From: Amphibalanus amphitrite
Taxonomy: Eukaryota > Arthropoda > Thecostraca > Balanomorpha > Balanidae
Length of the DNA stretch: 64,000 nt
Direction: 5' to 3'
Assembly: GCF_019059575.1 (NCBI RefSeq)
Contig: NW_024881971.1
Location: 1-64,000, forward strand
The notes beneath the pieces are model-generated. The model did not search any database and had not been told where the DNA came from. It saw nothing but the letters and a program-made list of their open reading frames with translations. Below, piece after piece: positions 2,059 to 63,582 of the stretch (position 1 is its first letter; each line of letters begins with the position of its first letter). The position numbers were made by a program, and so were the translations under genes.

Positions 2059-3068
2059 TTAACCCGCGCACCGACGGGGGGGGGCGGATATCCGCCCCCC
2101 CTGAGGTTTTTCGCGGATAGCGGGAAAATCGCGGCGCGTAGCGCCGCGAAATTTGGTATGACTATTCCCTCATCAATTTTACACATGGTGTGCAAGTTTG
2201 AACCTCCTAACTTTTAAGGTCAGGTCACCAGGTCACTTTGAATGACCCAACCTCAAGTCACTTTTTTGCAACTTTGTCACCGTGCCAGAGCTACAGTAGA
2301 TGTCGGAGGCCTTTCAAAGTCGCAGGATGTTATTAGGTCATTAGTAGCTACAATTTGTATATCTCGGAATTTTGATGTCGGTGACCTAAGGTCAGGTCAA
2401 TTTCGCGACCTCCCCATTATAAGTCAATGGGGGAAAAATCAACTCCCTGTTTTTACCACTAAAACGGGTCGGAATGGCCCCATATACCATACATGACTTC
2501 ACATACGATCAACCTTCACTACCTTGAGGTCTGTTTTGCTGTTGGGCAGCTGTAAGGTCATGTGACGTCATCAAAGGTCACCAAAGGTTTTTTGCCAATA
2601 ACTCCTTACAGGAACAAGATACAGCTGCGCGGATGGTCTCATTGTGTTCAGCTCGTCAAGACGCATCGAATGATATACATGATGACCTCGAGGTCACGTG
2701 ACTTGAGGTCAACCTTTGACCTTGACCTTTCGAGGTCAACATATATATCATTCGATGCGGATTGACGAGAGGATCACGATGATGCCCTTAGTTTGTTCCT
2801 ATCTTGACTACTTCGAAAGTTATTCGAGAAAAACCCTCTCCATATCTAGCGCCGCCATTTTGACTTTTTCGACCCCTGTGACGTCATCTTTGACCTGACC
2901 TGAAAATGACCTTGGTAAAAATTGTAGACCTTGTCCGTGCGTATCCGATGCCGTTTACCGCTTGTCGCTATCTTGCTTCGTTCTCGAGATCTCAGGGGGG
3001 GGGCGGTCATCCGCCCCCCCCCCCGTCGGTACTAAGTTGGCGCAGACCCCCGTCGGTGCGCGGGTTAA
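2059..3068 (+). mobile_element. Family B TTAA element, complete
   Basis: 1010 bp including TTAA at both ends. Terminus CCCGCGCACCGACGGGG. The A end (left) has one core, a G/C hairpin with loop CGGATATCCG and a second GC hairpin (about 2133-2150). The B end (right) has the core twice, 27 bp apart. The interior carries a central dyad (about 2650-2770) and many AGGTCA/TGACCT half-sites. No coding capacity. An inverted copy of identical length lies at 61304-62313. Confidence 0.9.
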
Positions 3069-3133
3069 ATGCCCTAAGGATAGGTACTAAACTTGTAGGC
3101 ACTTTGATTTTCAGGTCAGTGCCAGGTCATCAG

Positions 3134-3968
3134 CAGAGGTGAATAAAACGCAAAAGCTGTCACCTACGCGATGTCTAGCTGTCACCAACTTTTTAAAGTA
3201 ATCTTGAAACAGAAGGTACTTTTTGACGTTTTCTCATCACCTCTTTAGGCCTAAAAAATGAAAATGAGGCTAGAATAAAAAGAAACTGACCTTTAAAATT
3301 TCGGACTCTGGGCATTACAACGCATCACCACATTTCAGTGACACAGTACAACAAAAATAAATCATTACCATCCAACTTACCTAAACCTAGGTCTGACCGA
3401 CGTCCTAGCTCGTCCTGGCTTCCTGATCCAGTTCAATCAGAACTCATGAAAGGATTGTCAGTTGTCACTGATTCACTTGCCTTTGCTTCAGTAGTCGGAA
3501 CCAATTATCAACGCTCCTACCAAGTTTCTGGGACCGATGGTCATGGACCTCACCCCAGTTGTGGCCCAGATGTGACGTCCCCCGTCCCAGTCGCCCGGTG
3601 TTTCCCTACTCCGGCGGCGGCCAAGGCCGCGCCGGCCGCGCCGGTCCCCGCCACCGTTCAACCGGCGACGAGCGGGGACGAGCTGTCGCGCTGTCGCCGT
3701 TTTTCCTGCGTTGTCTATGGCGCTTCACAACGCACCGGCTGTCGCACCGGCGGGATTTTTCAGCCCCAGCTGTCTACAAAGAGATGACGCTGTTAAATTT
3801 TTGTGCCGTGGTCCATAGTGGCCCTCTATGGGAAGACAGCTCTGATTTTAGCGGGAACGGACTAGTTATCTATTTTAAATGCATCAACTGAGATGCTCGA
3901 ATCTGTCTCTTTATTCCTATGGCTGTCACCTACGCACGCAGGCGAGTAGCAGGGTTTTTTCACCTCTG
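3134..3968. mobile_element. hAT-type non-autonomous element
   Basis: Terminal inverted repeats CAGAGGTGAA..TTCACCTCTG are flanked by a perfect 8-bp duplication GTCATCAG (3126-3133 and 3969-3976). The 8-bp duplication plus a CAG..G-starting terminus is the hAT signature. A subterminal inverted motif (GCTGTCACCTACG) lies near both ends. Only short open frames and no transposase domain, so it depends on a transposase supplied elsewhere. Confidence 0.88.
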
Positions 3969-4019
3969 GTCATCAGAGTTCACGGAAATCTTTTATCACG
4001 CATCAGTCACATGACATAT

Positions 4020-4920: not shown

Positions 4921-5879
4921 ATATGTTTTAAGGTCGATTTAGACCATATATTTCCAATTGGTTATGTCGGTTGGTTATCGGTGTCGGTTATGTCATTAGA
5001 GGTCATTTTAAATTGATTTTAGCGTAGGTCAGGGAAAAAAGTCAAATTTTCAAGTTTAACCCGCGCCCTACTGGGGTCTGTGTATAACACGTCCTACTGG
5101 GGGGGGGGGCTATTCATAGCCCCCCTCCTAACTCCGAAACTACTGGGTTGATCGTCAAAATTCAAACGGCGTCTGATAGCCCCGGAAAAACTGCCAAGAA
5201 AAACCTAATTTCATTGACCTTGAGGTCACCAATGACGTCACAGGTCAGGTCAAACTAAAAATTATTAGCATTTTCGCTTGTTCACATTTTGGGCTCTGGC
5301 CGCCGTCTTACAAGTAAGATCATGCTCATTTTTGGTTTCCACACTCGTGAACAGAAGCTCTAGATATCTTGAGGGTACCAAACTTGTACTTTGATGTTCA
5401 GGTCAGGGTCAGGTCATCACAGGTCACGGAAATATTATATCATGCTTCGGTCACGTGACACATGTTTTATGGTCCATTTAGGCCATAGATTTCGAATTTG
5501 ATGTCGTCTGTGTCATTTGAGGTCATTTTGAGTCGAATTTAGCTTAGGTCAGGTCACTTTCAGGTCAAAAAAGGTCAAATTTTGAAGTTAATTTTTTTTT
5601 TTAAGGTGTCTATTGGATGCAGTTTGAGCTCAGGAACACGATGGTGCCATTTATATTGGTGTACGATGTCAAATTCGTACTGAAAAAATTGATTTGAAAA
5701 ATTAGTAATTGTGATTTTTTTTGCAATAATACGTATAACTTGCCCATTTTTGAAGATATTTAGCTAAAACTTGCTAGAGTTAGTCATATTCATGCGTTCT
5801 GTCACATATGTTCCGTTTTTTTTTTCGAAAAGTCAATTTTTTTTTTGAAAAAATATAAAAATATAGATTTTGAATATTA

Positions 5880-7075
5880 TTAACCCGCGCCCTGCTGGGG
5901 GTCCTGGATTTCCACGCCCTGCTGGGGGGGGGGTGTTTGAACACCCCCCCTTGTAACTCGGCTCCTGGGCCACGTAGCGATACGCGGAAGGCGGCGTTCG
6001 AAAGAGCGTCAAAAATAATGACGAAATCACTTCGGTCAATTTTTTGGTCAGGTCAAAGGTCAGGTCACCAGAGGTCATTGAAGGCAAAATTTCGCCGATT
6101 TCCAGGTCGAATGTCGAAAATTTCCAAGAAGGCAACGCATAACTCGGGAACCAATAGAGCTACAGCGCCGCGGAAAAGCGCATTCGATAGCCCTATTAAC
6201 GCCCTTTCTGAGTAATTCTCTCAGATTTGACCTAACGTCAACGGTTTTGCCTGCAGGGGGCAAAAACTGCAAAAATAGCCGATTTTTTCGAAAACAGTTT
6301 TTCTGCAATAACTTTTGACCCAAGCCTTGTACGAGCTTACTTTTACCGGCATCGTGTTCCTCTCGTCAAGACGCATCGAATGAACTATGACTTGACCTTG
6401 AAAGGTCAACTTGAAAATTTGACCTCAGGTCAAGGTCATGACCTGACCGGAAAGGGTCATGTTGCATATCAGTCGATCCGTATCGTCGAGCTGAACACAT
6501 CTAAGGCGTTTTCATCGCTCTAGCATGCCTCTATCAAAAGTTATTTGCGAAAAACTGTTAGATACTATTCGTGACCTAAGATGACCTCAGGGCATAAACA
6601 AGGGTCACGGACACCATTTTCAAGTTCAGTGTGTCTAAACCACTTGTAATTCGGTGTTTGGGAGTGTTTATAATGTCTTTCATCCAAAAGAGGCGCATTT
6701 CAATTTTCTCCCATTGACTTATAATGGGGAGGTCGCAAAATTGACCTGACCTTAGGTCATCGATATCAAAATTCTGAGATATACATTTTGTACATGCTAT
6801 TGCTTTCAGCAATCGCTGAAAGTTTCAAAGCGATCGGTCACTCGGTGTAGCTATGACAGACATTGAAAGTTTTTATGAGGTGAGGTCACTTCAAGTGACC
6901 TGGTGACCTGACCTTGAATGACTTTGGTCTGAAATTTTCACAACATGTGTAGAATTGATGTATGATAAGGTGTACCAAAAACGGCGGCGCTCCGCGCCGC
7001 CGTTTTTGAGATATTCGCAAAAAACCACAAGGGGGGGTGTTCAAACACCCCCCCCCCCAGCAGGGCGCGGGTTAA
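5880..7075 (+). mobile_element. Family A TTAA element, copy 1
   Basis: 1196 bp with TTAA at both ends. B end left: core CCTGCTGGGG at 5891 and 5918. A end right: single core, with GC hairpin (about 6983-7000) just inside. Loop TGTTTGAACA. The type 1 body has a central dyad (about 6365-6490) and dense AGGTCA half-sites. Inserted at a TTAA in the AT-rich interior of family C. The uninterrupted interior is visible in the inverted copy at about 62740. Confidence 0.9.
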
Positions 7076-7239
7076 ATAAAAGATTCAAAATTTTCAAACT
7101 TTTGAAAATCTGAGATAGCAGTTTGATAGCGCGGTCAATTCTAAATCCTTTCATGCAAAGAAATTGGATCTAGCTGAAAAACTGAGCTCTTGGGAGCGAT
7201 TGCCGTGGTTCAATGTTTTGCGTCGAAATCGGACGAACA

Positions 7240-7258
7240 TGACGTCACTCTGACGTCA
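7240..7258. promoter_or_regulatory. Paired TGACGTCA (CRE-like) sites, 11-bp pitch
   Basis: TGACGTCA at 7240 and 7251, one helical turn apart. The same pair, at 11-bp spacing, recurs at 9145/9156, 37325/37336, 41892/41903, 42123/42134 and 62571/62582. A degenerate first site gives 54537/54548. The CRE identity is established for CREB/ATF proteins; function here is inferred. Confidence 0.6.
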
Positions 7259-7428
7259 TTTCTGGCCGACCTATTGTAGCTACGAAGTTCAAATTTTGAC
7301 ACAAGGTGTCAAATTGATGCAGCCAAAGATACTAAAAGTTTGGCGTCAATCCGTCAAGCGGTTCGGAAGTTATTGCGGAAAAACAGGAGGGGGCTATAAA
7401 TAGCCCCCCCCCCCCAGTGGGGCGCGGG

Positions 7429-7591
7429 TTAAAATTGGGTATCATCGGCTTCGTCTCGTGACGGGCAACACGCTCGTTTTTTCCGCGAAATTCTCGCTCG
7501 ATCAGAGGCCAAACGCGAAAGGGGGGTCGTACCAACCCCCCCCCCTTGTGCCGTCAAAGGACGCAAAATGGCCTGTGCCGGCGAGGGTTAA
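7429..7591 (+). repeat. Family D right-end fragment (also 9330-9492)
   Basis: Reads 'aaaattgggtatcatcgg' then a G/C hairpin and the terminus GCGAGGGTTAA, matching the reverse complement of the left part of 4020-4920. It starts exactly at the TTAA closing family C. The rest of the host family D element is not on the other side of family C. Confidence 0.7.
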
Positions 7592-7718: not shown

Positions 7719-8433
7719 TTAACCCGCGCCCCAGTGGCTGGGAAAAGCCCCAGTCTCCGCCAACTTCGCCCTAGTGGGGGGGGGGGGCATATGTTACCAC
7801 CAACCTCTAACTCAAAAACTAAGAGGGATAAAAAGACGCGGTAAAAAGCAGTCGATAGCTCTCGATGCGTACTTTTGAATGTATTTTTTTGTCATTTTTC
7901 ATCCTAGAGCAATATTGGGGTCACCATAGGTCATCAAAGGTCAAAATTTGCGAATTGTCATTATATTTTTCAGAAAACATGCCAATATTTCAGGAACTAT
8001 GATAGCTAGAAAAATGCTGGGAAAAGCAATCGATAGCTTTTGAACTCTTCTTTTGATAAGGTCATCATCAAAAATGACCGCAGATCAACGGTTTAGCCTC
8101 CAGAGGGCAAAAACTCCAAAAATAGCTGTTTTTACGAAAAGTGTTTTTCGACAATAACTTTTGACTCAAAAAAGCTAGGACATTTATATTGCCAGAATCG
8201 TCTTCCTCTCGCCGAGACGCGTTGGATGAACTATAATCTGACCTTGAAAGGTCAACTTCAAAATTTGACCTCAGGTCAAGGTCATGACCTGACCGGAAAA
8301 GGTCATGTTGCATATCAGTCGATGCGTCTCAACAAGACAAACACAATGAGACCATCTCCAGCGTTCCATCTCTTTCCAATCGCGAGTTATTGGCAAAAAA
8401 CTGTTTGTAGCCTCAAATGACCTCGGATGACCT
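7719..8433 (+). mobile_element. Family E element, right-truncated (second copy 9620-10338)
   Basis: B end with TTAA and core pair CCCAGTGG..CCTAGTGG. Here the cores are 40 bp apart instead of 27 because the linker carries a 13-bp insertion. Matches the complete family E at 31464 until about 8433, where it switches to unrelated sequence without a terminus. Confidence 0.8.
8241..8311. promoter_or_regulatory. Cluster of seven AGGTCA/TGACCT half-sites
   Basis: About 70 bp hold seven nuclear-receptor-type half-sites. They include AGGTCATGACCT (inverted, no spacer) and TCAAGGTCA (extended monomer form). It is the centre of the type 1 body, repeated in every complete type 1 element. Receptor binding is not shown. 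Confidence 0.5.
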
Positions 8434-8646
8434 TTCCCTTGTCCGGGGTTCAACCGGTAGTTTATTATCATTAATTTATTCCTTTCAATGCATTTAGTGC
8501 AGATAACAATAAATGAGCTAATCGCAACTAGGTCAAAATAAACATAATTCGCCCGTATTGATAACGAACAATGTGACACTACCGATAGGTTAGAGTAAAA
8601 GGATATAGAACAGTTAGTCGTGTTAGTAGCGAGTCCATGTTATTCG
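8434..8646. other. Short unassigned spacer (repeated at 10339-10551)
   Basis: Sequence between truncated family E and family F. No gene or repeat recognised; present in both tandem copies. Confidence 0.5.
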
Positions 8647-9100: not shown

Positions 9101-11001
9101 GCGATTGCCGTGGTTCAATGTTTTGCGTCGAAATCGGACGAACATGACGTCACTCTGACGTCATTTCTGGCCGACCTATTGTAGCTACGAAGTTCAAATT
9201 TTGACACAAGGTGTCAAATTGATGCAGCCAAAGATACTAAAAGTTTGGCGTCAATCCGTCAAGCGGTTCGGAAGTTATTGCGGAAAAACAGGAGGGGGCT
9301 ATAAATAGCCCCCCCCAGTGGGGCGCGGGTTAAAATTGGGTATCATCGGCTTCGTCTCGTGACGGGCAACACGCTCGTTTTTTCCGCGAAATTCTCGCTC
9401 GATCAGAGGCCAAACGCGAAAGGGGGGTCGTACCAACCCCCCCCCCTTGTGCCGTCAAAGGACGCAAAATGGCCTGTGCCGGCGAGGGTTAAAAGGCGAA
9501 GATGCAGAAGCCGATATGGAAGGTCAATGCTATCAGTGTTCTGGATCTGGCGTAGGATAGTCATTACCGACTGTCTTGATGATGGTCGGATAATGATAAG
9601 CAAGCACTACTGCACACTTTTAACCCGCGCCCCAGTGGCTGGGAAAAGCCCCAGTCTCCGCCAACTTCGCCCTAGTGGGGGGGGGGGGGGGGCATATGTT
9701 ACCACCAACCTCTAACTCAAAAACTAAGAGGGATAAAAAGACGCGGTAAAAAGCAGTCGATAGCTCTCGATGCGTACTTTTGAATGTATTTTTTTGTCAT
9801 TTTTCATCCTAGAGCAATATTGGGGTCACCATAGGTCATCAAAGGTCAAAATTTGCGAATTGTCATTATATTTTTCAGAAAACATGCCAATATTTCAGGA
9901 ACTATGATAGCTAGAAAAATGCTGGGAAAAGCAATCGATAGCTTTTGAACTCTTCTTTTGATAAGGTCATCATCAAAAATGACCGCAGATCAACGGTTTA
10001 GCCTCCAGAGGGCAAAAACTCCAAAAATAGCTGTTTTTACGAAAAGTGTTTTTCGACAATAACTTTTGACTCAAAAAAGCTAGGACATTTATATTGCCAG
10101 AATCGTCTTCCTCTCGCCGAGACGCGTTGGATGAACTATAATCTGACCTTGAAAGGTCAACTTCAAAATTTGACCTCAGGTCAAGGTCATGACCTGACCG
10201 GAAAAGGTCATGTTGCATATCAGTCGATGCGTCTCAACAAGACAAACACAATGAGACCATCTCCAGCGTTCCATCTCTTTCCAATCGCGAGTTATTGGCA
10301 AAAAACTGTTTGTAGCCTCAAATGACCTCGGATGACCTTTCCCTTGTCCGGGGTTCAACCGGTAGTTTATTATCATTAATCCATTCCTTTCAATGCATTT
10401 AGTGCAGATAACAATAAATGAGCTAATCGCAACTAGGTCAAAATAAACATAATTTGCCCGTATTGATAACGAACAATGTGACACTACCGATAGGTTAGAG
10501 TAAAAGGATATAGAACAGTTAGTCGTGTTAGTAGCGAGTCCATGTTATTCGTTAAACCCTCGCGGCCCCGGGGGGGGGGGCGTTTTTCGCCCCCCCCCCC
10601 TGGCGAATATTTGCGATAGCTCCCGAACGCTTAGGGATAGGAAAGCGAAACTTTCAGTACCTTTTCTCCCATCAATTTGACATCTTCTGAAGTAAAAAAT
10701 TTGGACCTAGCCCCCTTGATGACGTCACAAGGTCCATTTTTCTAGACCCCTGCACGGCAAACCTCGGCGTCACAGACGCAAACTTCAAATAGCTACTAAA
10801 AATAGAGTTTTAGAGATAAAGACAAATTACGAGCACGGTTGTGTAGCGTTTGACCTAGAGAAAAATAGAAAAATACTTTCGGTGACCTGAGGTCAAAGGT
10901 CAGGTCAACGACCCCGAAATGTGGTTTTAGTTTTTCGCAAAAAAAAACTTCGACAAAAATGGTCCTAGAGCTACGGTAGTGGTACCATCGCATTCGCCTT
11001 G
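9101..11001 (+). repeat. 1.9-kb segmental tandem duplication, copy 2
   Basis: Repeats 7196-9098 almost identically. The junction 'cgccttg|cc|gcgattgcc' at 9092-9109 has only a dinucleotide between copies and no transposon terminus. Copy 2 continues past 11001 into the rest of family F. So copy 2's right side and copy 1's left side are the original flanks. Confidence 0.9.
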
Positions 11002-11755
11002 TCAAGCCGCGTCGAATGATATATATATTTTGTTCGGAAAAGGTCAAATTTTATGTTGACCTCATGTGACCTCGAATGACCTCTGGTTGACCTTGACACA
11101 TGAAAGGTCGTTTATGATGGATTTGTATCCGCTGATCACGAATCTGGCATCTATTTTCCTCTTAGCCTTCATTTAGAGCTTCCAGATGGCAAAATTGTCT
11201 TATTTATTATAAAGTACTTGAATTAGTGAAATAGCCTCTAGCAGGGATACTCTTCTGTGACCTTGACCTTTGAGCAGCCTTGTATCGTAAGATGAACCAC
11301 AAATAGGGAACTGATAAGCCTCAAAACATTTCAAAACATCTTGGAAGTTAGCACGCAAGATGTGCGAAAAAGTGCCAAGTTTGAGGTCAATTTTGAGCGT
11401 GACCTTGACCTTGACCTTTGATTTTGAGCACAGTTTCGGAATTCTCAAATTCTCTTCTTTCGTTTGACGCCCAATTTTACCGGTTTGATGCAGCCTGCCG
11501 TCCTCTAGAAGGCTTACTTTGAAATCACTACACATGTGCCGGTTTTTGCATTTGACCTTGACCTCTGACCTTGAAAATTGACCTGAGGTCAAAAATTTTA
11601 GGTGCTTTAGAATCGTCTCGCAAGTCGCAAGGACCTTTCGTTTGGTATCGCTTTTGTTTCCGTAGCTCCCTTATTTACGGAGTTAGACAGGGGGGCGAAA
11701 AACGCCCCCCCCGGGCTGCGGTGGTTGGGATTACCCCCGGGCCCGGCCGGGTTAA
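10552..11755 (+). mobile_element. Family F TTAA element (5' part also at 8647-9098)
   Basis: 1204 bp between TTAA sites. A end left: core GGCCCCGGGG once, hairpin loop CGTTTTTCG. B end right: CCCCCGGG at 11708 and 11734, 26 bp apart. The interior has AGGTCA/TGACCT sites and half of the type 1 central dyad near 11000. A truncated copy at 8647 ends at the tandem-duplication junction. Confidence 0.85.
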
Positions 11756-36349: not shown

Positions 36350-37511
36350 CCCGCGCCCCGTAGGGCTACCGGCGGACCCTACCACCCGAAGGGGGGGGTG
36401 TCGTTTCGGCCCCCCTAAGATCTCGGAAATTTACCAGCCGATGTTCAAAATTCAAACGGCGTTCGATAGCCCCACCCGGGAACTACCTTGTGACCAAATT
36501 TCATTGACCTAGGTCAAACCGATGACGTCACAGGTCAGGTCAAAGGTCAGATTTTCACCGTTCACAGGCATTTCAAGAAATGCGTTGTGAAATTGAGTAA
36601 ATTGCTAATTTATTGAAAACCATCGATGGTACATTGTTCGTCAAACACATACTTTGCTATCTGAGGTCACTGATACCAGGTCAGGTCACAGCGAGGTCAG
36701 GTCACCGGGGTCACAATATGAAAGTGTCGTGTGATACATGTTTTATGATCCACTTTACATGACAAATGTGATTATGTGGGTAAGGCAGCCTTTGGGGCCA
36801 GCCTAGGTCACGTTTTGGTGAAGGTCAGGTCAAGGTCAGGTCAAATTAGGTCAAATTTCAAAGTTGGTATTTTTGCATAAAATGGGTGTCAATTCGATGC
36901 AGCTCGTCACGGGGAGTCTAATGGTGGTCTTTGTTTTGCTCTACGAGGTCTGGAATTGCCAAAAATTGAGTTTGAAAATTTGGCGTCATCATTTTTGAAC
37001 AGTTTTTTCGCTATAACTTGGCCAAAAGACGAGGTATCGATCTGAAATTTGGTATGTAGATAGAAAACGGTAGTTACTATCACATATATTCCGGTTTTTT
37101 TGAAACTCTAAAAACTTTTTTGATTTTTGGCTAATATATCCAAAAAAATGCGTTTTTGATTTTGGGGGGTTTAAACTCAAACATTTCGAAAATCCGAGAT
37201 AGCAGTTTTGTAGCCCTGTCAATTCTACACCTTTTATGTCTTGATCATTTTTCTGTATCTTCAAAGTTGTAGGCCTGGCAGGTCTTCGCGCGAAGGTCTT
37301 TTTTCGGTCGAAAATTACAGAACATGACGTCATTCTGACGTCATTTGTGGCCAACCTATCATAGCCTCTGGAAAATATTTTTGGTCACAATGTGTAAAAT
37401 TGATGTCCGGAGGGGTCCTGAAAGTTTGGTGGCGATATCTCCAGCCGTTTAGGAGATATCGACGGAAAAGGACAGGGGGGCCGTTTCGGCCCCCTACGGG
37501 GCGCGGGTTAA
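36346..37511 (+). mobile_element. Family J TTAA element
   Basis: 1166 bp. B end left: CCCCGTAGGG with a weaker second core (CCGAAGGGG) 28 bp on. A end right: CCCTACGGGGCGCGGG. Loop TCGTTTCGG/CGTTTCGG. Type 2 body with paired TGACGTCA at 37325/37336. Its left TTAA is the right TTAA of family D. Confidence 0.85.
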
Positions 37512-47730: not shown

Positions 47731-47775
47731 GTCGTCTTGAATGCAGTCCGCTTATCTCAGCCTCTTGTCGCCACT

Positions 47776-49352: not shown

Positions 49353-50215
49353 TTAACACGCGCAGTGGAAGGGGGGGCGGATTTCGCCCACCCCTCCTGT
49401 TTTTCGCCAATAACTCGCGCCGCAAGCAAAGTATCAATGTGAAATTTCGGCTACCTGTCCAGAATTGAATTGCGGATCTTCTCGTGCAAGAAGTAAGAAA
49501 ATCGGTTCACAACTTTTCTAGTAATAGCGGTGTAAAGTCAAACATCCTGCCGCCGCCGCGGCGCGGCGGCGCGGCGGCCGGCGCTAGCCGTTGCGCGCCG
49601 CCTGAATTGTAGACTGTGCCGGGGCGGGACGCTTCCGTCTTTACATCGCGCTCCTTACCGCTGATTATATTAGATTCGCTTCAAATTCAATGAGAAGACT
49701 GAGAAATGTACAGGCAATCATATGGTCAAAGAATTTTGAAAATCGGCCGGTAACAACTTGAGTTATGAGTGTGTAAACACAAAATTGTGATTGCCGCGTT
49801 TCCCGCGTCGGCCGATGCCGCTTCAGCCGGCGACATCTTACCCTTAGCAGGCTTCTAACTGCCATATTTATTGTTGGATTATCTAGAAAATCACCATACA
49901 TACTCACAAATGTTTGCTCTTTCGTATAGTGAAAGTTTTATAAAAATCGGCCGGTACCTTTTTGAGTTATCGGCGTGTAAACGCAAAAAAGTCGCTAATA
50001 TGGCAGATTTGACCACATTTGACCTCATTTGACCTTGAAGATATTGACCTAGTGTCATGAAATTCACACACAACAGAGTTCCCCATGGCCCCCACCTACC
50101 CTCCAAATTTTGTCTTTCTAGCTCCAGTGGGAGCTGAGATCTTAGGGGGGGCGACATCCGCCCCCCCCCCTTCCACTGGGCGTAGTACTCGCAACCCTTC
50201 CACTGCGCGTGTTAA
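49353..50215 (-). mobile_element. Family I element in gag
   Basis: 863 bp between TTAA sites; single core at left (A end), core pair 27 bp apart at right (B end). The uninterrupted site 'gatattaagtctt' is seen in int2 at about 58521. Confidence 0.92.
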
Positions 50216-50601: not shown

Positions 50602-51794
50602 CTAGCCCGCGCCCGGCTGGGGTCCTGGATTTCCACGCCCTGCTGGGGGGGGGTGTTTGAACACCCCCCCTTCTAACTCGGCTCCTGGGCCACGTAGCGA
50701 TACGCGGAAGGCGGCGTTCGAAAGAGCGTCAAAAATAATGAGGAAATCACTTCGGTCATTTTTTTGGTCAGGTCAAAGGTCAGGTCACCAGAGGTCATTG
50801 AAGGCAAAATTTCGCCGATTTGCAGGTCGAATGTCGACAATTTCCAAGAAGCCAACGCATAACTTGGGAACCAATAGAGCTACAGCGCCGCGGAAAAGCG
50901 CATTCGATAGCCCTATTAACGCCCTTTCTGAGTAATTCTCTCAGATTTGACCTAACGTCAACGGTTTTGCCTGCAGGGGGCAAAAACTGCAAAAATAGCC
51001 GATTTTTTCGAAAACTGTTTTTCTGCAATAACTTTTGACGTAAGCCTTGTAAGAGCTTACTTTTACCGGCATCGTGTTCCTCTCGTCAAGACGCATCGAA
51101 TGAACTATAACTTGACCTTGAAAGGTCAACTTGAAAATTTGACCTCAGGTCAAGGTCATGACCTGACCGGAAAGGGTCATGTTGCATATCAGTCGATCCG
51201 TATCTTCTAGCTGAACACATCTAAGGCGTTTTCATCGCTCTAGCATGCCTCTATCAATAGTTATTTGCGAAAAACTGTTAGATACCATTCGTGTCCTAAG
51301 ATGACCTCAGGGCATAAACAGGGGTCACGGACACCATTTTCATGTTCAGTGTGTCTAAACCACTTGTAATTCAGTGTTTGGGAGTGTTTATAATGTCTCT
51401 CGTCCAAAGGAGGCGCATTTCAATTTTCTCCCATTGACTTATAATGGGGAGGTCGCAAAATTGACCTGACCTTAGGTCATCGATATCAAAATTCTGAGAT
51501 ATACATTTTGTACATGCTATTGCTCTTAGCAATCGCTGAAAGTTTCAAAGCGATCGGTCACTCGGTGTAGCTATGACAGACATTGAAACTTTTTATGAGG
51601 TGAGGTCACTTCAAGTGACCTGGTGACCTGACCTTGAATGACCTTGGTCTGAAATTTTCACAACATGTGTAGAATTGATGTATGATAAGGTGTACCAAAA
51701 ACGGCGGCGCTCCGCGCCGCCGTTTTTTAGATATTCGCGAAAAACCACAAGGGGGGGTGTTCAAACACCCCCCCCCCAGCAGGGCGCGGGCTAG
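50602..51794 (+). mobile_element. Family A element, copy 4, TSD CTAG
   Basis: 1193 bp, near-identical to 5880-7075, flanked by CTAG instead of TTAA (50602-50605, 51791-51794). int2 shows the single CTAG at about 58914. B end left (cores 26 bp apart after a lost G), A end right with GC hairpin. Confidence 0.92.
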
Positions 51795-51811: not shown

Positions 51812-54030
51812 TTAACCTTCGGCCCAGTGGGGGGGGGGCATATGTTACCACCCTGTTGCGTTTTTTGTGTGTGACTAAAAAACCGCGGCGCTACGCGCCG
51901 CGCCGCTTGGGGTAGCTTTTGGTACATCAATTTTGGACAATGTGTGAAATTTTTGACCCCAGGTCATGTCAGGTCAGGTCACCAGGTCAAGTTAACTGAC
52001 TAAGCCTAAAAAAGTTTGCAATCATGTCCAGCCTGCAGTGTTTGTCAGAAATGTTTGAAACTTGGTGGATTGCATGCTGTTATGGGCGCCTACAATTTGT
52101 ATATCTCGGATTTTTTATATTCGTGACCAAAGGTCAGGTCAGTGGCGTGACCTTTCCATTACAAGTCAATGGAGAAAAATGAAAATGCCTCTAGATCCGT
52201 GTGTACGCATCGGAACAGTCCAAATATTTCAGAATCACAATGATTTAGTCCACTCGTGATGACCAAGGTGTCATTTTTGCTGATAGCCTCCAGACAGGTC
52301 ATCCGAGGTCACTTGAGGCTACAAACAGTTTTTTGCCAATAACTCGCGATTGGAAAGAGATAGAACGCTGGGGATGGTCTCATTGTGTTTGTCTTGTTGA
52401 GACGCATCGACTGATATGCAACATGACCTTTTCCGGTCAGGTCATGACCTTGACCTGAGGTCAAATTTTCAAGTTGACCTGTCAAGGTCAAATTATAGTT
52501 CATTCGACGCGTCTCGGCGAGGGGAACACGATTCTGGCCATAGAAATGTCGTGGCTTTTTGTAGTCGAAAGTTATTGTCGAAAAACACTTTCCTTAACCC
52601 TCGCCCTGGCAGGGCATTTTTCATAACACGGCCTGGCAGGGGGGGGGGTCGATGCGACCCCCCCCCTCGCGATTGGCTCCTATGGCACCTAGAAACACCA
52701 AATTTGGTAGGTAGGTGGGCCCCATGGAGTTCTCGCCCCTGTGCAAATTTGGTTGCTCTAGGTCAATATTTAGGGGGGTTTTGGGGGTATAAATGTAAAA
52801 ATTTCGTTAAAAACAGGTCAAAAGTTTTTCGCTTATAACTTTTGATCTAATTAAGATAGAGCAAAAAGAAAAGCACCAGTGAACTCAGCACGTCAAGGCG
52901 CGTCGAATGATATACTTTTTAGCTTGCTTAAGTGTACTTAAAGTTTTTCTTAAATTTTAAGTAAACTTAAATTAATAAATTAAGTTAAAGTTAACCAAAT
53001 TGCATCATATCGCATATCATTCGATTTGGCTGATCACCAGGAACACAATGATACCATTTTTAAAGCTCTAGCGTCATTATGTGCCAAGTTATTGGCAAAA
53101 ACGTCATTTGACCTCAGTTGACCTCATTTGACCTGACCCATGGATAAGTAATCCAAACAAAGAAGCACCAAGTGACCTGCTGTTAAGTACTGTGGTTTCA
53201 AAGCACAAAAGTGATAGAACGAAGCGGATATCTCCAGTATTTTCCGAATTTAGTATTTTCCCATAGGCTTAACATTACGACGTAATGACCTCTAACTGAC
53301 CTCAGGTCACTGACCTCAAAAAACCCGAACTATATGTTATACAACTCGGTGACCTTAGCACATCCTGAAAGTTTGAAGGAAATCAGTGCAAAACTGTGAG
53401 TTGGACAGGTGCGAAAAGAAAATTGAAATTTGACCATGACCTTGTACCGGTTTTTCTGACCTGGTGACCTGACCCAAGGTCACCCGGACCTGAAATTTTC
53501 AGGTCATATGCAAAAAGGTTGCCCCATAGGCTGTGCCAAATTTGGCGGCGCTGCGCGCCGCCGTTTTTACGCTATCTTCGAAAAACCTTAGGGGGGGGGT
53601 CGCATCGACCCCCCCCTGCCAGGGCGAGGGTTAAAAACAGCTATTTTTGGAGTTTTTGCCCTCTGGAGGCTAAACCGTTGACCTGAGGCCAATATTGATA
53701 AATGACCTTTTAAAAAGAAGAGTTCAAAAGCTATCGTTTTCTTTTCCATGCGTTTTTCTAGCCACCATAGTTCCTGAGATAGCGGCATGTTTTCTGAAAA
53801 ATATAATGACAATTGGCAAATTTTGACCTTTGATGACCTCTGGTGACCCCAATATTGCTCTAAGGTGAAAAATGACCGAAATACTTTCAAACGTACGCAT
53901 TGAGAGCTATCGACTGCTTGTTACCGCGTCTTTCTAGCCCTCTTAGTTTTTGAGTTAGAGGCGGGTGGTAACATATGCCCCCCCTCACTAGGGCGAAGTT
54001 GGCTGAGACCGCCACTGGGGCGCGGGTTAA
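51812..54030 (-). mobile_element. Family E element in gag, with nested family N
   Basis: TTAA flanks; int2 has 'ggtcgttaaggaaaa' uninterrupted at 58930. A end left with GC hairpin (about 51890-51910), B end right. Without family N it is 1182 bp, against 1185 for the copy at 31464. Confidence 0.9.
52594..53634 (+). mobile_element. Family N TTAA element
   Basis: 1041 bp. B end left: CCTGGCAGG at 52605 and 52632 (27 bp). A end right: single core and GC hairpin (about 53543-53565). Loop TCGATGCGA. Central dyad present (about 52895-53030), but its middle is an AGTTTAC/TTAAGT-rich stretch instead of AGGTCA sites. Confidence 0.9.
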
Positions 54031-57221: not shown

Positions 57222-57975
57222 TGTTAGTATTTGTTACATCTTTACGGCCGCCGGGCCGTCCGGCTGGCCGCTGCTGCTACAGCCAGCAGCGCTGCGGCGC
57301 AGTCTACCCGGTGGGCGCTCGGCCGCGCTGCGCGGCGCGTTCGCTGATTGGTGACCCGTGGATCACGTGACTGGCGGTGATGTGGGGCCGGTGCCGCGGC
57401 GGCGGCGCACTCTCGCAGGAGATTCGGGCGGGACCGGAACGTTGGCCGTGTGGTGTGGATCTCGGAGTCGGACTGATGTGCCGGCTTTGTCCGCTCGCTC
57501 CGCGGCAACGTGTTCGGCGTAATTTGTTGGACGCTGTTGAGAATGGGACTTCTGTCCTGTTTGAAGCCCACCAACTAAATTGCGCCGAACAGCCAAAATC
57601 TTAAGAGGTGGGATTGCAGTCCTGCCTCTAACATCAACCTCGTTCGGCTACCGGCACCCGACGCCTGGCCATGTTAATATAAGCTATATTAACATTGCAG
57701 GCCCCCATTAGGGATTTACTTACATTTCCTCGGCAATTATTTTGTATACACACGGCCTCACCGTGATTCAAGGAGGCTATAAACGGGTAGCGATTGCGCT
57801 CATGTCGTAATTGAGTTATACTGGCCATTGCACAGTTTGTCTGTACGATTGAATGACCTGATTTATTGTGGCAATAAGACGTGAGGAGCCAAATCCACAG
57901 TCTTTTGGTTAGACCTGATTTGGACAAAAGCCAGAGGCGAGAGGGAAACCGAACAGTCTGGCTGAGTTCCTGACA
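57222..57975 (+). repeat. BEL LTR2 (754 bp)
   Basis: Begins TGTTAGTATTTG directly after a GGTGGGGAGAAA purine tract and ends CTGACA. Contains a single TACAG where the Gypsy element entered LTR1. It differs from LTR1 and LTR3 in about 57800-57870. Confidence 0.9.
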
Positions 57976-58197
57976 TAAGTCCACCGGGGCCGGATCGTCT
58001 TTTCTTTCGTTGGGACTTCCGTCTTGGCGATTGGACTGGCTTTCGTTGGGACTTCTGTCCTGGCGATTGGGCTGGCCTTCGTTGGGACTACCGTCTTGGC
58101 GATTGGACTGACTTTCGATCCCTACTTTGCTATAATTTGTTTTACATACAGTCCGCTTTATATCTTAATTTAAATTGAATTTGATACCTGTCACATC
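57976..58197 (+). repeat. BEL leader 2 with three 36-bp units
   Basis: Same leader as 48736-49027 but with three repeat units (58010-58118) instead of five. Confidence 0.75.
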
Positions 58198-59031
58198 ATG
58201 GATGAACTTTTGAGTACGAGAACAAAGCTTCGTTCAAAGGCCACGAAACTGTGCAATGAGCTTCGAACTTACCGAGAAGGTGATCGTAAAAACTTGGACC
58301 CAGACCTACTTGCCCTCAAGCTCCACCATGTTCAGAAGGTGCAGAGCGAGCTGAACAGCACTCAGGCTGAGCTCGACAAGCTAGGGCATGCAGATGATTC
58401 TAGTCACATACAGACCATGGAGGATGAGGTGTTTGTGGGCTCTCGCCTACTCACCCGCCTTGAAAGGGCTGAGGAAGCTAAGGAAAGGGCTGAGCCACCG
58501 ACTGCGTCAGGTAACACCGATATTAAGTCTTCCATCTCCGTGAAAATTCCTACTTTTCACGGGGACATCATGAAATGGTCCGAGTTCTGGGAACTATTTG
58601 AAATCTCTGTCCACAACAATCCTGGCTTCGCAGACGTGCAGAGATTCGTAGTGCTCAAGTCGCACCTGGCTGGGGTGGCACTTAAATGCGTGCAAGGCAT
58701 TCCCGTCTCAGGTGGTGGGTACACTGAGGCCGTCTCAGCTCTTAAACAGCGCTTCGAGCGTGATGACGTCCGCCGAGAAACTCTCATGAAGGACATGCTG
58801 AACATGCCGGCAGTCCGTCACAACGATCTGAAGGCCATGAGGTCTCTCATCGATCATCTGCCCACACATACTCGCGCTCTGAGCACTCTGGGTGTCAGTT
58901 CCGACAGTTTCTCTAGCCTGATGCTGCCGGTCGTTAAGGAAAAAATCCCAGAAAGCTGGCGTCTTGAGTGGGCCAGACGAGAGAGCAGCGACTTTTCCGA
59001 GTTTTTGGAGTTCCTGCAGCATGAGATGTGA
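58198..59031 (+). pseudogene. BEL gag, internal region 2 (premature stop)
   Basis: 277 codons from ATG. An N-terminal coiled-coil-like region (about 1-95) is followed by the BEL/Pao gag core (IPTFHGDIMKWSEFWELF, LKSHLAGVALKCVQG) and the PESWRLEWARRE segment. It ends at a TGA after LQHEM where int1 has CGA. The same frame continues after it towards the zinc knuckles, so the stop is probably a copy-specific lesion. Confidence 0.8.
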
Positions 59032-59112
59032 GTCCGGGAGTCTGCCAGAGGGAACACAGTATCGACTGTCTCCTTTGAAGTTCCGATCTCGGCACCATAT
59101 GCCATCAGCAGC

Positions 59113-60791
59113 TTGCACACCCAACGCATGGCCCGCAACGGGAACAGACCCAGCGCGCCGGTGTGCGGATGCTGCAGACATGGCTCCCATAGATTGGATC
59201 AATGCACGAAGTTTCAGCAGCTCTCGGTTGAGGCCCGATGGAAGAGCGCTAGAGCTCAAAAGTCCTGTTATCAATGTCTTCGGTCGGGACATCTGGCTAC
59301 AGCCTGTCGTGGCAACTCGTGCCCCATCTGTGGCAAACGGCATCACTCATTTCTTCACTACGCGAGTGCTGCACCACAGAGAAACGGTGATGAGAGACCC
59401 CGGTTGTCACCCGAAGCTCCATCCTTCTTCCCTTCTCAGACCACAGCTCGGCGCACCCAGTCTGATGCTGACACTCGAGATGCTGTCCATCAGGGTACTC
59501 ATCGCTACAATTCCACAAGCATGTCTGGAAAGGAAACCTTTTTCCAAACGGCATTGGTCGATGTTGAGGGACCCGGAGGCAAGAAGAAGGCACGTCTCCT
59601 CATTGATGGAGGTTCGGACGCCTCCTATATCAGGACCTCTTTGGCAAAGGAGCTGGAGCACCCGGTTACAGATACGGGCACGTTTGCCTGTGTCGGATTT
59701 CAGGAAAAAAGGAAGAAGCAAGGTCCTATGAGCAGGTCCAAGTGACGCTCCGCGGTCGGTTCGGTGGCGAGCCTGTCACGTTAAAGATGTGGAGCACGGA
59801 GTTCTTGTGCTCGCCTCTCCCGGCAACCTCACCACCCACTGGGCCTTCCGAACTGCCGGATTTGATGGCCGACGATTTTGACGGTGGGGAGGTGGACCTC
59901 CTGATCGGCATAGATTATCTGTATCATGTTGTGTTGTGGGAGCAAATCGAGTTCGGAGAGGGGCTGCGGGCCATAGAAACCGTCTTTGGTTACGTGCTCC
60001 ATGGGTATAATGGTGACTGTTCACAGACTCAGCCTCGTCACCAGACTTCCCACTGCCGTCAGCTGAGACAGGTGTGGCGTCTGGATGAGATGAGGTTTGG
60101 CCAGAATGCGGCCATGGGAACGGAAGGCATGCTGCCTCAACCAAATTGGAGCGAGCCAGTGGGCTGCTCCAGTGCAGGGATGTCTGTGACATTGGAGTCG
60201 CATGATCGCTCCTCATTCGACCATGATTCCGCAAGGTCACGAACCTCGCAGATTTCAGAGCTGCTGAATGCCGAAAAGACTCACCTGTGTGGTGAGCAGC
60301 ACAAAACATTGACAAATAAAGGTGGGGAGATGACTCTCTCTGTCAAAGGGTCAAATGATGACCCAGAGCAAAATGGTGTTGGCGGAGCCGGGCTGTCGCC
60401 GGGCGAACACGACTCCTGGGCTGTGGCCCGGAGTCAGGGTCTGAGGCCCTCCTCGTCTCTCCATGGGGAGATCGCCCCATCATCTGCGGTGGACGGGGTG
60501 GACCGGGGCCAATGGAGTGCTGAAGCACCCCGGCGGCCCCGCCGGTGCCCGTCAACGCCGACGCTGGGTGACTGTCGGCAGCCGTCTCCGAAGAGACGAC
60601 GTCTTCGGAGACGCTGGAGGAGCGACGGCCTAAGACGGAGGTGGAGCCGGAGCTGGAGGACGCCTGCACCACCGGCAGCACCGTCTCACTTCCCAGCGTT
60701 CCCACGCCTATGGAAGAGGAGGAAGAAGAGGTTGCAGCCGATGACGCTGGCCTCCGGTCCAAGGACCCATGGCCAGCTGCGGGAGGACTGA
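59113..60791 (+). pseudogene. BEL zinc knuckles and protease, internal region 2
   Basis: Frame 59113-59745 holds CGCCRHGSHRLDQC, CYQCLRSGHLATAC and CPICGKRHH knuckles and the protease motif LLIDGGSDASYI. At an A-run near 59705 the frame changes and 59742-60791 continues with the second protease-associated region (DLLIGIDYLYHVVLWEQIEFG) and a low-complexity tail. The same shift exists in int1, so it is either old or translationally bypassed. No polymerase or integrase follows before the purine tract at about 60912-60923. Confidence 0.8.
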
Positions 60792-61303
60792 CGAGGCCCG
60801 CAACGACAGCCGCAACCAAGTTCGCGTGCGGCCAGTGAAGTGAAGTGTGTCTGCTTGTGAATGTGTGCGCGTTTGTGTTGAAAATGTGTTAACTTTAGAG
60901 TTCCCACATTTTGGTGGGGAGAAATGTTAGTATTTGTTACATCTTTACGGCCGCCGGGCCGTCCGGCTGGCCGCTGCTGCTACAGCGAGCAGCGCTGCGG
61001 CGCAGTCTACCCGGTGGGCGCTCGGCCGCGCTGCGCGGCGCGTTCGCTGATTGGTGACCCGTGGATCACGTGACTGGCGTTGATGTGGGGCCGGTGCCGC
61101 GGCGGCGGCGCACTCTCGCAGGAGATTCGGGCGGGACCGGAACGTTGTCCGTGTGGTGTGGATCTCGGAGTCGGACTGATGTGCCGGCTTTGTCCGCTCG
61201 CTCCGCGGCAACGTGTTCGGCGTAATTTGTTGCACGCTGTTGAGAATGGGACTACTGTCCTGTTCGAAGCCCACCAACTAAATTGCGCCGAACAGCCAAA
61301 ATC

Positions 61304-62313
61304 TTAACCCGCGCACCGACGGGGGTCTGCGCCAACTTAGTACCGACGGGGGGGGGCGGATGACCGCCCCCCCCCCTGAGATCTCGAGAACGAAGCAAGA
61401 TAGCGACAAGCGGTAAACGGCATCGGATACGCACGGGCAAGATCTACAATTTTTACGAAGGTCATTTTCAGGTCAGGTCAAAGATGACGTCACAGGGTTC
61501 GAAAAAGTCAAAATGGCGGCGCTAAATATGGAGAGAGTTTTTCTCGAATAACTTTCGAATTAGTCAAGATAGGAACAAACTAAGGGCATCATCGTGATCC
61601 TCTCGTCAATCCGCATCGAATGATATATATGTTGACCTCGAAAGGTCAAGGTCAAAGGCTGACCACAGGTCACGTGACCTCGAGGTCATCATGTATATCA
61701 TTCGATGCGTCTTGACGAGCTGAACACAATGAGACCATCCACGCGTCTGTATCTTGTTCCTGTACGGAGTTATTGGCCAAAAACCTTTGGTGACCTTTGA
61801 TGACGTCACATGACCTCACAGCTGCCCAACAGCAAAACAGACCTCAAGGTAGTGAAGGTTGATCGTATATGAAGTCATGTATGGTATATGGGGCCATTCC
61901 GACCCGTTTTAGTGGTAAAAACAGGGAGTTGATTTTTCCCCCATTGACTTATAATGGGGAGGTCGCGAAATTGACCTGACCTTAGGTCACCGATATCAAA
62001 ATTCCGAGATATACAAATTGTAGCTACTAATGACCTAATAACATCCTGCGACTTTCAAAGGCCTCCGACATCTACTGTAGCTCTGGCACGGTGACAAAGT
62101 TGCAAAAAAGTGACTTGAGGTTGGGTCATTCAAAGTGACCTGGTGACCTGACCTTGAAAGGTAGGAGGTTCAAACATGCACACCATGTGTAAAATTGATA
62201 AGGGAATAGTCATACTAAATTTCGCGGCGCTACGCGCCGCGGTTTTCCCGCTATTCGCGAAAAACCTCAGGGGGGGCGGATATCCGCCCCCCCCCCGTCG
62301 GTGCGCGGGTTAA
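61304..62313 (-). mobile_element. Family B TTAA element, inverted copy
   Basis: 1010 bp, the same length as 2059-3068. B end left: ACCGACGG at 61315 and 61342 (27 bp). A end right with GC hairpin (about 62222-62241). Empty site 'aaatcttaagaggtgg' in LTR1 (48348) and LTR2 (57597). Confidence 0.93.
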
Positions 62314-62395
62314 GAGGTGGGATTGCAGTCCTGCCTCTAACATCAACCTCGTTCGGCTACCGGTACCCGACGCCTGGCCATGTTAATAAGCTATA

Positions 62396-63582
62396 TTAAC
62401 CCGCGCCCCACTGGGGGGGGGGGCTATTTATAGCCCCCCCTCCGGTTTTTCTGCAATAACTTCCAAACCGCTTGACGAATCGACGCCAAACTTTTAGTAC
62501 CTTCGGCTGCATCAATTTGACACTTTGTGTCAAAATTTGAACTTCGTAGCTACCATAGGTCGGCCGGAAATGACGTCAGAGTGACGTCATGTTCGTCCGA
62601 TTTCGACGCAAAACATTGAACCACGGCAATCGCTCCCAAGAGCTCAGTTTTTAAGCTAGATCCAATTTCTTTGCATGAAAGGACTCAGAATCGACCGCGC
62701 TATCAAACTGCTATCTCGGATTTTCAAAATTTTGAAAATTTCGAAAATTTTATATAATAATATTCAAAATTTATATTTTTATAATTTTTTCAAAAAGTTT
62801 TTTACTCTTCGAAAAAACCGGAATATATGTGACAGAACGCATGATTGTGACTAACTCTAGCAAGTTGTAGCTAAATTTCTTCAAAAATGGCCAAGTTATA
62901 CGCATTATTGCAAAAAATTCACAATTATTAATTTTTCAAATCAATTTTTCAGTACGTATTTGGCATCGTACACCAATATGAATGGCACCATCGTGTTCCT
63001 GAGCTCAAACTGCATCCAATAGACACCTTTTTTGTTGAAAAATTTGAACTTCAAAATTTGACCTTTTTTGACCTGAAAGTGACCTGACCTAAGCTAATTT
63101 CGACTCAAAATGACCTTGAATGACACAGACGACATCAAATTCGAAATATATGGCCTATATTGACCATAAAACATGTGTCACGTGACCGACGCATGATGTA
63201 ATATTTTCGTGACCTGTGATGACCTGACCCTGACCTGAAAATCAAAGTACAAGTTTGGTACCCAAAAGGTATCTAGAGCATCTGTTCACGAGTGTGGAAA
63301 CCAAAAATGAGCCTGATCTGACTTGTAAGACGGCGGCCAGAGCCCAAAATGTGAACAAGCCAAAGTGCTAATAATTTTTACTTTGACCTGACCTGTGACG
63401 TCATCGGTGACCTCGAGGTCAATGAAATTAGGTTTCGCTCGACAGTTTTTCCGGGGCTATCAGACGCCGTTTGAATTTTGACGATCGGCCTAGTAGTTTC
63501 GGAGTTAGGAGGGGGGGCTATGAATAGCCCCCCCCCCCCAGTAGGGCGTGTTATACACAGACCCCAGTGGGGCGCGGGTTAA
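62396..63582 (-). mobile_element. Family C TTAA element, inverted copy
   Basis: 1187 bp. A end left with single core, B end right with the core pair. Loop CTATTTATAG. Paired TGACGTCA at 62571/62582. Empty site 'tatattaacat' in LTR1 and LTR2. Confidence 0.93.

What the first reader, a model, noticed from the sequence alone, without database searches (positions are those of the whole stretch)
2059..63582. Family-specific end core duplicated at one end with a fixed 26-27 bp pitch across 13 unrelated TTAA families
Each family has its own terminal core, present twice at one end and once at the other. Start-to-start distances read from sequence are: A 5891/5918 (27), B 61315/61342 (27), C 5067/5093 (26), D 35518/35544 (26), E 31474/31501 (27). 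Then F 11708/11734 (26), G 30830/30857 (27), H 29689/29716 (27), I 32958/32985 (27), K 55521/55548 (27). Finally L 41710/41737 (27), M 40201/40228 (27), N 52605/52632 (27). Family J is weaker (28), and the truncated family E at 7719 has 40 because of a linker insertion. Cores differ completely between families (CCTGCTGG, ACCGACGG, ACTGCAG, CAGTGGAAGG and so on), so three copies per element co-vary while spacing stays fixed. This looks like an asymmetric transposase-binding architecture evolving in concert. piggyBac ends are also asymmetric, with an internal repeat at different distances, but I know of no such recoded set.
Basis: partly seen in the sequence, partly recalled or inferred. Interest (0 to 1): 0.95.

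Follow-up and report, generated by a model that had tools for sequence, protein, structure and literature searches.

The report
Barnacle piggyBac transposons, canonical doubled end
A stretch of barnacle DNA holds many families of piggyBac-type jumping genes whose right end carries its recognition word twice, about 27 letters apart, just as in the moth piggyBac used in laboratories; the spacing is known, but seeing it survive so many different recognition words in one genome is useful evidence for how these elements work.

Summary
In the window, 25 of 29 hand-listed double (D) ends carry a family-specific core twice, 26-28 bp apart. None of 21 single (S) ends does.

The architecture is not new: the Trichoplusia ni piggyBac right end has the same duplication at exactly 27 bp, and disrupting it halves activity (published). 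Nor are the families unrelated: 12 of 13 complete ones are linked by interior homology.

The window is from an acorn barnacle, Amphibalanus amphitrite or a near relative. I read 31 of 116 piggyBac transposase loci of its genome. All 7 with a T. ni-type transposase (4 families) lie between such D/S ends; 13 of another branch have simple ends; 11 are unresolved.

Four insertions have clean empty sites, at TTAA (two), CTAG and TTAT. One element shares 97% of its interior with family B but has different ends, so interiors seem to be exchanged between families while each end set stays matched.

The parts
5880..7075 (+). Family A element, D-end 5880 (CCCTGCTG x2, pitch 27), S-end 7075; nested in the C element 5056-7432
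   Evidence: TTAA both sides; self-BLAST
50602..51794 (+). Family A copy at a CTAG target; empty CTAG site at 58913-58916 in the paralogous retroelement copy
2059..3068 (-). Family B element, S-end 2059, D-end 3068 (ACCGACGG x2, pitch 27)
61304..62313 (+). Family B element, D-end 61304, S-end 62313
5056..7432 (+). Family C element (pitch 26) with nested A
62396..63582 (-). Family C element, S-end 62396, D-end 63582 (pitch 26)
35506..36349 (+). Family D element (CGTAT core, pitch 26); shares TTAA 36346-36349 with J
31464..32648 (+). Family E element (CCC[C/T]AGTG, pitch 27)
51812..54030 (-). Family E element with nested N; empty TTAA site at 58934-58937
7719..8436 (+). Truncated family E copy, core spacing 40; tandem duplicate at 9620
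10553..11755 (-). Family F element (pitch 26), S-end 10553, D-end 11755
28913..30874 (-). Family G element (pitch 27) with nested H
29678..30714 (+). Family H element (ACTGCAG, pitch 27)
32948..35258 (+). Family I element (CAGTGGAA, pitch 27), interior interrupted
49353..50215 (-). Family I element; empty TTAA site at 58523-58526
36346..37511 (+). Family J element (pitch 28)
   Evidence: second J copy L016
54361..55566 (-). Family K element (pitch 27) at a TTAT target; empty TTAT site at 59268-59271
41701..42308 (+). Family L element (CGGCCGCT, pitch 27); flanks TTAA / TTAT
52594..53634 (+). Family N element (CCTGGCAG, pitch 27) nested in E, TTAA on both sides; the related site in the E copy at 31863 lacks an intact TTAA
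40176..40246 (-). Family M D-end (TAGTGGCAGG with its tip, x2, pitch 27); M D- and S-ends both present in L032
7521..7591 (-). Family O D-end (CGGCACA, pitch 27); O ends flank a transposase ORF in L027
27516..27600 (+). Family P D-end (CGTGCTGG x2, pitch 27)
57278..61307 (+). Retroelement copy (DUF1759; BEL/Pao-like by recalled association) that supplies four of the empty sites

Best explanation
These are non-autonomous relatives (0.6-1.2 kb without nested insertions) of T. ni-type piggyBac transposons in a barnacle. Each family's ends are read by its own transposase lineage. The S-end is the equivalent of the T. ni left end: tip, core, palindrome. The D-end is the equivalent of the right end: tip, core, spacer, second core, palindrome. 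By homology with T. ni piggyBac, the outer cores (D1 and S) are held by the catalytic transposase dimer that cuts and joins. The second core (D2) is held by an inner, non-cutting dimer. [quoted passage not shown] A core-to-core distance of 26-28 bp (about 2.5-2.7 helix turns) keeps the two dimers in register, so it is kept while core and palindrome letters change with the transposase. Interiors are exchanged between families by recombination or conversion, which is why families with different ends share interiors. SHOWN: architecture, spacing, matching cores and palindromes, insertion with 4-bp duplication, transposases between such ends, the tree, one clear mosaic. INFERRED: which domain binds which site, the tetramer, one transposase lineage per family, recombination as the cause of mosaicism.
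For: Pitch 27 also in the T. ni right end, 8/8; 'RE bp 34-63 almost identical to LE bp 7-35' and a CRD-dimer palindrome; 5-bp insertion or second-core mutation each cuts activity about 50% (published). 7 of 7 fetched loci with a T. ni-type transposase lie between D/S ends: C33, C527, C44, C778, C702, C1173 and C42. They are 4 families: C527, C44, C1173 and C42 are one. The C702 result was predicted in a note before its wider flanks were read; C1173 and C42 were fetched expecting D/S ends, because their scores resembled C527, but no note records it. 0 of 13 resolved loci of the other branch have a duplicated core at their own ends. Tree (unrooted): the five barnacle T. ni-type rows in it group together (100/95), next to 10 T. 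ni-like rows (100/100; 7 from named insects, 3 unnamed). DDD triad and T. ni-pattern CRD; PF13843. Empty sites. Window families align to autonomous elements. Cores D1-S 97% within, 43-46% between; palindromes 86% within, 42% between, 0 of 20000 permutations. Drift simulation never reached 56/56. Mosaic B/Q.
Against: In the C527 family (4 copies seen) D and S cores differ at 2-3 of 8 bases, so matching is not absolute. D2 is only 83-85% identical to D1 or S. Palindromes at the two ends match poorly in D (0.22) and J (0.64). The distance from core to palindrome centre is 16.5-30.5 nt (leaving out the family D S-end, where the script hit another inverted repeat at 48), against 18.5-19.5 in T. ni; this follows G-run length and is not what a rigid CRD position predicts. 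Outside the window the automatic caller gave 18 D calls, of which 11 are at 27-28 with at least 7/8 and 7 fall below. In L021 a D/S pair also encloses a transposase of the other branch, but there the transposase has its own simple TTAA ends inside (2667-5347 within 2507-6420), so it reads as a nested insertion. In C778 the flanks are TTAA and TTAG and other elements are nested, so the link of ORF and ends is less firm. Of the 4 autonomous families only O also has an end in the window. 11 of 31 loci are unresolved. Genome-wide copy counts could not be made (pattern search did not complete). No binding or transposition data for any barnacle protein.
Confidence: 0.88

Rival explanations
1. The duplicated core is a chance or neutral terminal tandem duplication, and all families are one ancestor drifting by substitution.
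For: Interiors of 12 of 13 complete families are connected by homology. In M the tip is duplicated along with the core, as a simple tandem duplication would give.
Against: D1 and S cores are identical in 56 of 56 positions over the seven families with the best-aligned interiors, while 0 of 20000 drift simulations reached that at 67% or 79% interior identity (the simulation assumes ends as old as interiors, which mosaicism puts in doubt). Pitch stays 26-28 in 16 window families and further loci, and T. ni has the same pitch.
Confidence: 0.05
2. Matching cores arise by gene conversion or copying from one end of an element to the other, not by selection from the transposase.
For: In K the S tip CCTTCC matches the sequence before the second D core 6/6 and not the D1 tip (3/6); in E 5/6 against 4/6.
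Against: Palindromes of the two ends differ in the middle or are inverted in B, C and H while their arms match. Sequence inside the palindromes is unlike at the two ends (by eye). The C527 family keeps unlike D and S cores in 4 copies.
Confidence: 0.12
3. The G/C-run palindromes act as hairpins or G-quadruplexes in the process, rather than as CRD binding sites.
For: G(n)-loop-C(n) palindromes at both ends of most elements; run lengths vary widely.
Against: Loop arms are family-specific and match at both ends, as expected of a protein-read site; T. ni has a CRD palindrome at a similar place; the transposases carry a T. ni-pattern CRD.
Confidence: 0.1
4. The elements are moved by another TTAA-specific superfamily (for example Kolobok), not piggyBac.
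For: TTAA target alone is not diagnostic (recalled).
Against: PF13843 transposases sit inside D/S ends in 7 of 7 T. ni-type loci (hmmscan and DDD triad checked on 4 of them); tips begin CCC, CAC or CCT.
Confidence: 0.01

Closest known systems
Trichoplusia ni piggyBac LE35/RE63 ends (Chen 2020, PMC7351741; passages and section 13 read)
   Same: TTAA target, CCC tip, core starting at about bp 7, single core + CRD palindrome at one end, core duplicated at 27 bp + palindrome at the other; DDD transposase with the same CRD pattern
   Different: Different core and palindrome letters; palindromes framed by G and C runs of variable length, so core-to-palindrome distance varies; many families in one genome; transposases only 29.5-33.7% identical to the 99%-identical T. 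ni relative P0002
CMITEs of Acropora corals (PMC2872659; abstract, passages, section 10 read)
   Same: TTAA-flanked non-autonomous piggyBac relatives whose interiors are more alike between families than their ends; one element with another family's interior
   Different: About 100 bp long, no duplicated core or palindrome described in what I read; the puzzle left open there is answered here in one case by a mosaic element
piggyBat of Myotis lucifugus (PMC11707139, PMC13405395; passages read)
   Same: Repeated core + palindrome units and an asymmetric transpososome with outer catalytic and inner non-catalytic dimers
   Different: Motif pitch 44 bp at the left end, no repeat at 26-28 bp in LE85 or RE75 in my scan; different CRD fold
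Other barnacle piggyBac elements of the same genome (13 loci, such as L011, L021)
   Same: TTAA target, CCC tip, PF13843 transposase
   Different: Simple ends (TTAACCCATTAGTGCC and similar), no duplicated core, no G-run palindrome at their own ends; separate branch of the tree

Membership tests
piggyBac superfamily | TTAA target site duplication and seamless insertion | tested here: met
   Clean empty sites for 4 insertions: TTAA for I and E, CTAG for A, TTAT for K; N has TTAA on both sides but its reference site is mutated. 15 of 18 complete elements have TTAA on both sides, F with one extra A at one end; the exceptions are one A copy (CTAG/CTAG), K (TTAT/TTAT) and L (TTAA/TTAT)
piggyBac superfamily | CCC-type tips as inverted repeats | tested here: met
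   18 complete elements, tips CCC, CAC or CCT
piggyBac superfamily | DDE_Tnp_1_7 transposase with DDD triad encoded between matching ends | tested here: met
   C33, C702, C527, C44, C1173, C42, C778; hmmscan and triad on C33, C702, C527, C778; none of the 116 listed PF13843 matches is on the window's contig C474
T. ni-type piggyBac (LE35/RE63) | Core duplicated at 27 bp at one end only | tested here: met
   T. ni 27; here 26-28
T. ni-type piggyBac (LE35/RE63) | Transposase groups with T. ni PB | tested here: met
   Tree, 100/100, with P0002 standing for T. ni
T. ni-type piggyBac (LE35/RE63) | C-terminal cross-brace CRD of T. ni pattern | tested here: met
   Cysteine/histidine pattern by eye in 4 proteins; no structure predicted
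T. ni-type piggyBac (LE35/RE63) | Palindrome at a fixed distance from the core | tested here: inconclusive
   Palindrome present, distance varies with G-run length
T. ni-type piggyBac (LE35/RE63) | Activity needs one LE and one RE | not testable with these tools
   The 18 complete window elements are all D+S, which agrees
CMITE-like piggyBac MITEs | Interior shared between families with different ends | tested here: met

The most novel reading that the evidence does not exclude
One barnacle genome carries 20 or more end-recoded T. ni-type piggyBac systems that evolve as plug-in parts. The set of five binding sites (three cores, two palindromes) stays matched to its transposase lineage and its 26-28 bp phase, while interiors are freely swapped between families by recombination. 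The sets would then be largely non-cross-reacting, a natural library of orthogonal transposons and a direct test of which transposase residues read the core.
Probability: 0.45. Interest if true: 0.72.

Novelty: new member of a known kind. Interest (0 to 1): 0.5.

Why it matters
The duplicated right-end core of piggyBac was called a 'puzzling arrangement' when its structure was solved, on one element. Here the same spacing is kept through 16 different core sets in one window and eight more in other loci, and among the loci that I could resolve it follows the T. ni-type transposase branch. That is independent evolutionary evidence that the spacing, not the letters, carries the function. The matched sets of core and palindrome, with their transposases, make the code between transposase and end readable by comparison. 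The B/Q mosaic offers an answer to why piggyBac MITE interiors can be more conserved than their ends.

Tried and rejected
Transposase in the window: 10 of the 30 ORFs of 150 aa or more were scanned and gave no PF13843, and none of the 116 genome matches lies on contig C474. Public collections: the S-end pattern found 0 in viral contigs and 1 in genome contigs (L001), a bacterial chance match without palindrome or homology. A T. ni-type protein alignment found no relative in viral contigs or genome contigs. Daphnia Pokey paper: my five terms on end repeats had 0 occurrences. The first 20 piggyBac loci looked like evidence against (simple ends, note), until T. ni-type ones were separated from the rest. 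Of 31 loci, 11 gave no credible own ends and enter no count: L010, L013, L017, L019, L025, L028, L032, L033, L035, L038, L039. C702 showed no own ends in its first narrow stretch and needed a wider one. In L042 the best-scoring end pair joined a neighbouring family N D-end; I took the second pair, whose S-end belongs to the C527 family. In one search the automatic caller labelled two D-ends as S because of an ATAA inside the D spacer (L030, L037) and made one spurious D call (L038 4211); I reclassified these by eye. In one search the A copy at 50602-51794 was measured two bases off at both ends; its right coordinates are. A ninth outside core set (L012/L035, pitch 28 at 7/8, 5/8) is doubtful and not counted. 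Families M, O and P lack an S-end in the window, so 13 of 16 families entered. Literature: the title and abstract listings showed no paper on a fixed core pitch across piggyBac families; Luo 2022 is not held. I did not search for other G-run-framed palindromes.
Full report
WHAT WAS CLAIMED.

All 13 coordinate pairs give the stated distances, with 6 to 8 of 8 bases equal. A repeated 8-mer was found at pitch 27 in 22 sites and at pitch 26 in 3; other pitches had 0 to 7 (3 of the 22 are overlapping TTAAs at 28866-28874). Of 29 D-ends that I listed by hand, 18 have their best pitch at 27, 6 at 26 (D 27854 with 6 of 8 bases only), 1 at 28, and 4 do not fit. None of 21 S-ends reaches 7 of 8 at any pitch from 18 to 45. 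The 18 complete elements that I assembled all have one D-end and one S-end.

MORE THAN CORES CO-VARY. Inside each G-run/C-run palindrome is a loop, 9-10 nt in 24 of 26 ends, whose arms are family-specific and alike at both ends: mean similarity 0.86 within elements (better of the two orientations) against 0.42 between, 0 of 20000 permutations. Two families match poorly (D 0.22, J 0.64). In H the D and S loops are reverse complements of each other, as a two-fold site allows. The cores are 97% identical between D1 and S, 85% between D1 and D2 and 83% between D2 and S within elements, against 39-46% between families at the same site; the mean within-element identity was reached by 0 of 20000 permutations.

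THE FAMILIES ARE RELATED. Interiors of 12 of 13 complete families are connected by BLAST hits with E up to 1e-3: A, B, E and H at 67-72% over much of their length, C, J and K in pieces at 65-85%, the rest partly by stretches as short as 18-40 bases; only D stands alone among them. D matches the O element in L027.

THEY MOVED. A retroelement (DUF1759) is present twice in the window. One copy was hit by elements I, A, E and K; the other shows the clean empty site for each: TTAA, CTAG, TTAA and TTAT. N sits in an E copy with TTAA on both sides; the other E copy gives the related site, without an intact TTAA. Two of the four clean cases are thus non-TTAA targets.

IT IS THE KNOWN RIGHT END OF PIGGYBAC. 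Chen 2020 (PMC7351741; passages, section 13) describes the T. ni left end (35 bp) and right end (63 bp), the latter with an insertion and a sequence duplication, called puzzling. They state that right-end bp 34-63 are almost identical to left-end bp 7-35, a shift of 27. From the end sequences printed in PMC7846023 (one passage) my script gives pitch 27 with 8 of 8 bases. They report that 5 bp inserted in the right end, or a scrambled second repeat, each lowers transposition by about half, and that with the native transposase only the left/right pair both excises and integrates. They propose a catalytic dimer at the tips and an inner non-catalytic dimer. piggyBat has a 44 bp motif pitch at its left end and no repeat at 26-28 in the oligos I tested.

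THE HOST. The Ty3-like ORF at 43573-47730 is 99-100% identical to Amphibalanus amphitrite proteins over the parts aligned (78% and 42% of it). The transposase of C33 is 96-97% identical to A. amphitrite proteins over half its length. The genome held is 808 Mb in 2644 contigs.

THE TRANSPOSASES. A search of that genome for PF13843 gave 116 matches, many with long open frames (only the best candidates are scored). I read flanks of 31 of them (wider stretches of C33 and C702). 13 have resolvable own ends of the simple kind (TTAACCCATTAGTGCC and similar) with no duplicated core, 11 are unresolved, and 7 have a transposase much closer to T. ni PB (196-269 bits in phmmer; the next is 91). All 7 lie between D/S ends. 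C33 (4723 bp, frame of 666 codons) has D cores CCCTGGTG twice at 27 bp and S core CCCTGGTG. C527 (3971 bp) and C44 (3975 bp) have D cores CGACCAGG twice at 27 bp and S core CGCCTAGG. C778 (L027) has family O ends around a T. ni-type ORF, with nested insertions and flanks TTAA/TTAG. For C702 I noted the prediction of D/S ends before reading its wider flanks, and found D cores CCCCGTTG twice at 27 bp and S core CCCCGTTG. C1173 and C42, fetched with the same expectation, turned out to be the C527 family again, so the 7 loci are 4 families. In the tree the five T. ni-type rows then at hand group together (100/95) next to 10 T. ni-like rows (100/100), 7 of them from named insects; the 11 distinct simple-ended rows lie elsewhere (100/100); the root is for drawing only. 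The catalytic DDD residues and the T. ni pattern of CRD cysteines and histidine are present in the 4 proteins checked.

A CASE THAT COULD MISLEAD. In L021 a D/S pair (2507 and 6420) encloses a transposase of the other branch. That transposase has its own simple TTAA ends inside (2667-5347), so I read it as one element nested in another.

WINDOW FAMILIES ARE DERIVATIVES AND MOSAICS. E aligns to C33 at both ends (1-701 at 71%, 812-1185 at 67%), as expected of an internal deletion; A also aligns to C33, J and K to C702, D and O to C778. Element Q, nested in C702, is 97.4% identical to B over B 45-725, as alike as two B copies are to each other over their whole length (97.0%), but falls to 54-72% beyond that and has different cores. 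The simplest reading is a recent exchange of the interior between elements with different ends. J and K also look patchy. This weakens the drift simulation, which assumes that ends and interiors are equally old.

RESULTS AGAINST. The C527 family keeps D and S cores that differ at 2-3 of 8 positions in all four copies, so the rule of identical cores is not absolute. The distance from core to palindrome centre is not constant. Pitch 26 and 28 occur and are kept in both copies of C and both copies of J, while one A copy has 26 where three have 27, so the tolerance is about one base either way. Four of 29 D-ends fail. Outside the window the automatic caller made 18 D calls, 10 at 27 and 1 at 28 with at least 7 of 8, and 7 below that, one of them spurious; those loci were chosen for transposase matches and are not a random sample. 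A genome-wide count was not obtained.

VERDICT. A true and informative observation on a known architecture. The elements are members of T. ni-type piggyBac with palindromes framed by G and C runs. What is new to me, and not seen in the literature listings named under Tried and rejected, is the constancy of the spacing across so many recoded families in one genome, its restriction to the T. ni-type transposase branch among the resolved loci, and the exchange of interiors under conserved end sets.

Noticed in passing
50602-51794 and 54361-55566: Two elements inserted at CTAG and TTAT instead of TTAA, each with a clean empty site in a paralogous retroelement copy; relaxed target choice in these families would be worth counting genome-wide.
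   Followed up: partly
C702:33975-34969 (in L040/L031) against window 61304-62313: Element Q has the interior of family B at 97% but different ends: a mosaic transposon.
   Followed up: partly
54361-55566 and 31464-32648: In K (6/6) and E (5/6) the tip of the S-end matches the sequence before the second D core better than the D1 tip, as if the S-end came from the inner half of a D-end. C33 shows the same by eye (CCTTCG).
   Followed up: partly
7196-11001: Tandem duplication of a 1.9 kb segment (99.3% identical) carrying C, O, E and F element parts.
   Followed up: no
43303-48026: Ty3-like LTR element with an open 1385-aa ORF and 99.6% identical 251-bp repeats at its ends, so probably recently inserted.
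   Followed up: no
20998-23565: 855-aa open frame with a ubiquitin C-terminal hydrolase domain in one piece; host gene or captured gene not determined.
   Followed up: no
L030:50-160: Two S-ends of the C527 family meet head to head at one TTAA, as if two copies inserted side by side.
   Followed up: no
window, G-runs next to the cores: Length of the G-run differs between copies of one family (A D-ends: 7 to 13), suggesting slippage and changing the core-to-palindrome distance.
   Followed up: partly
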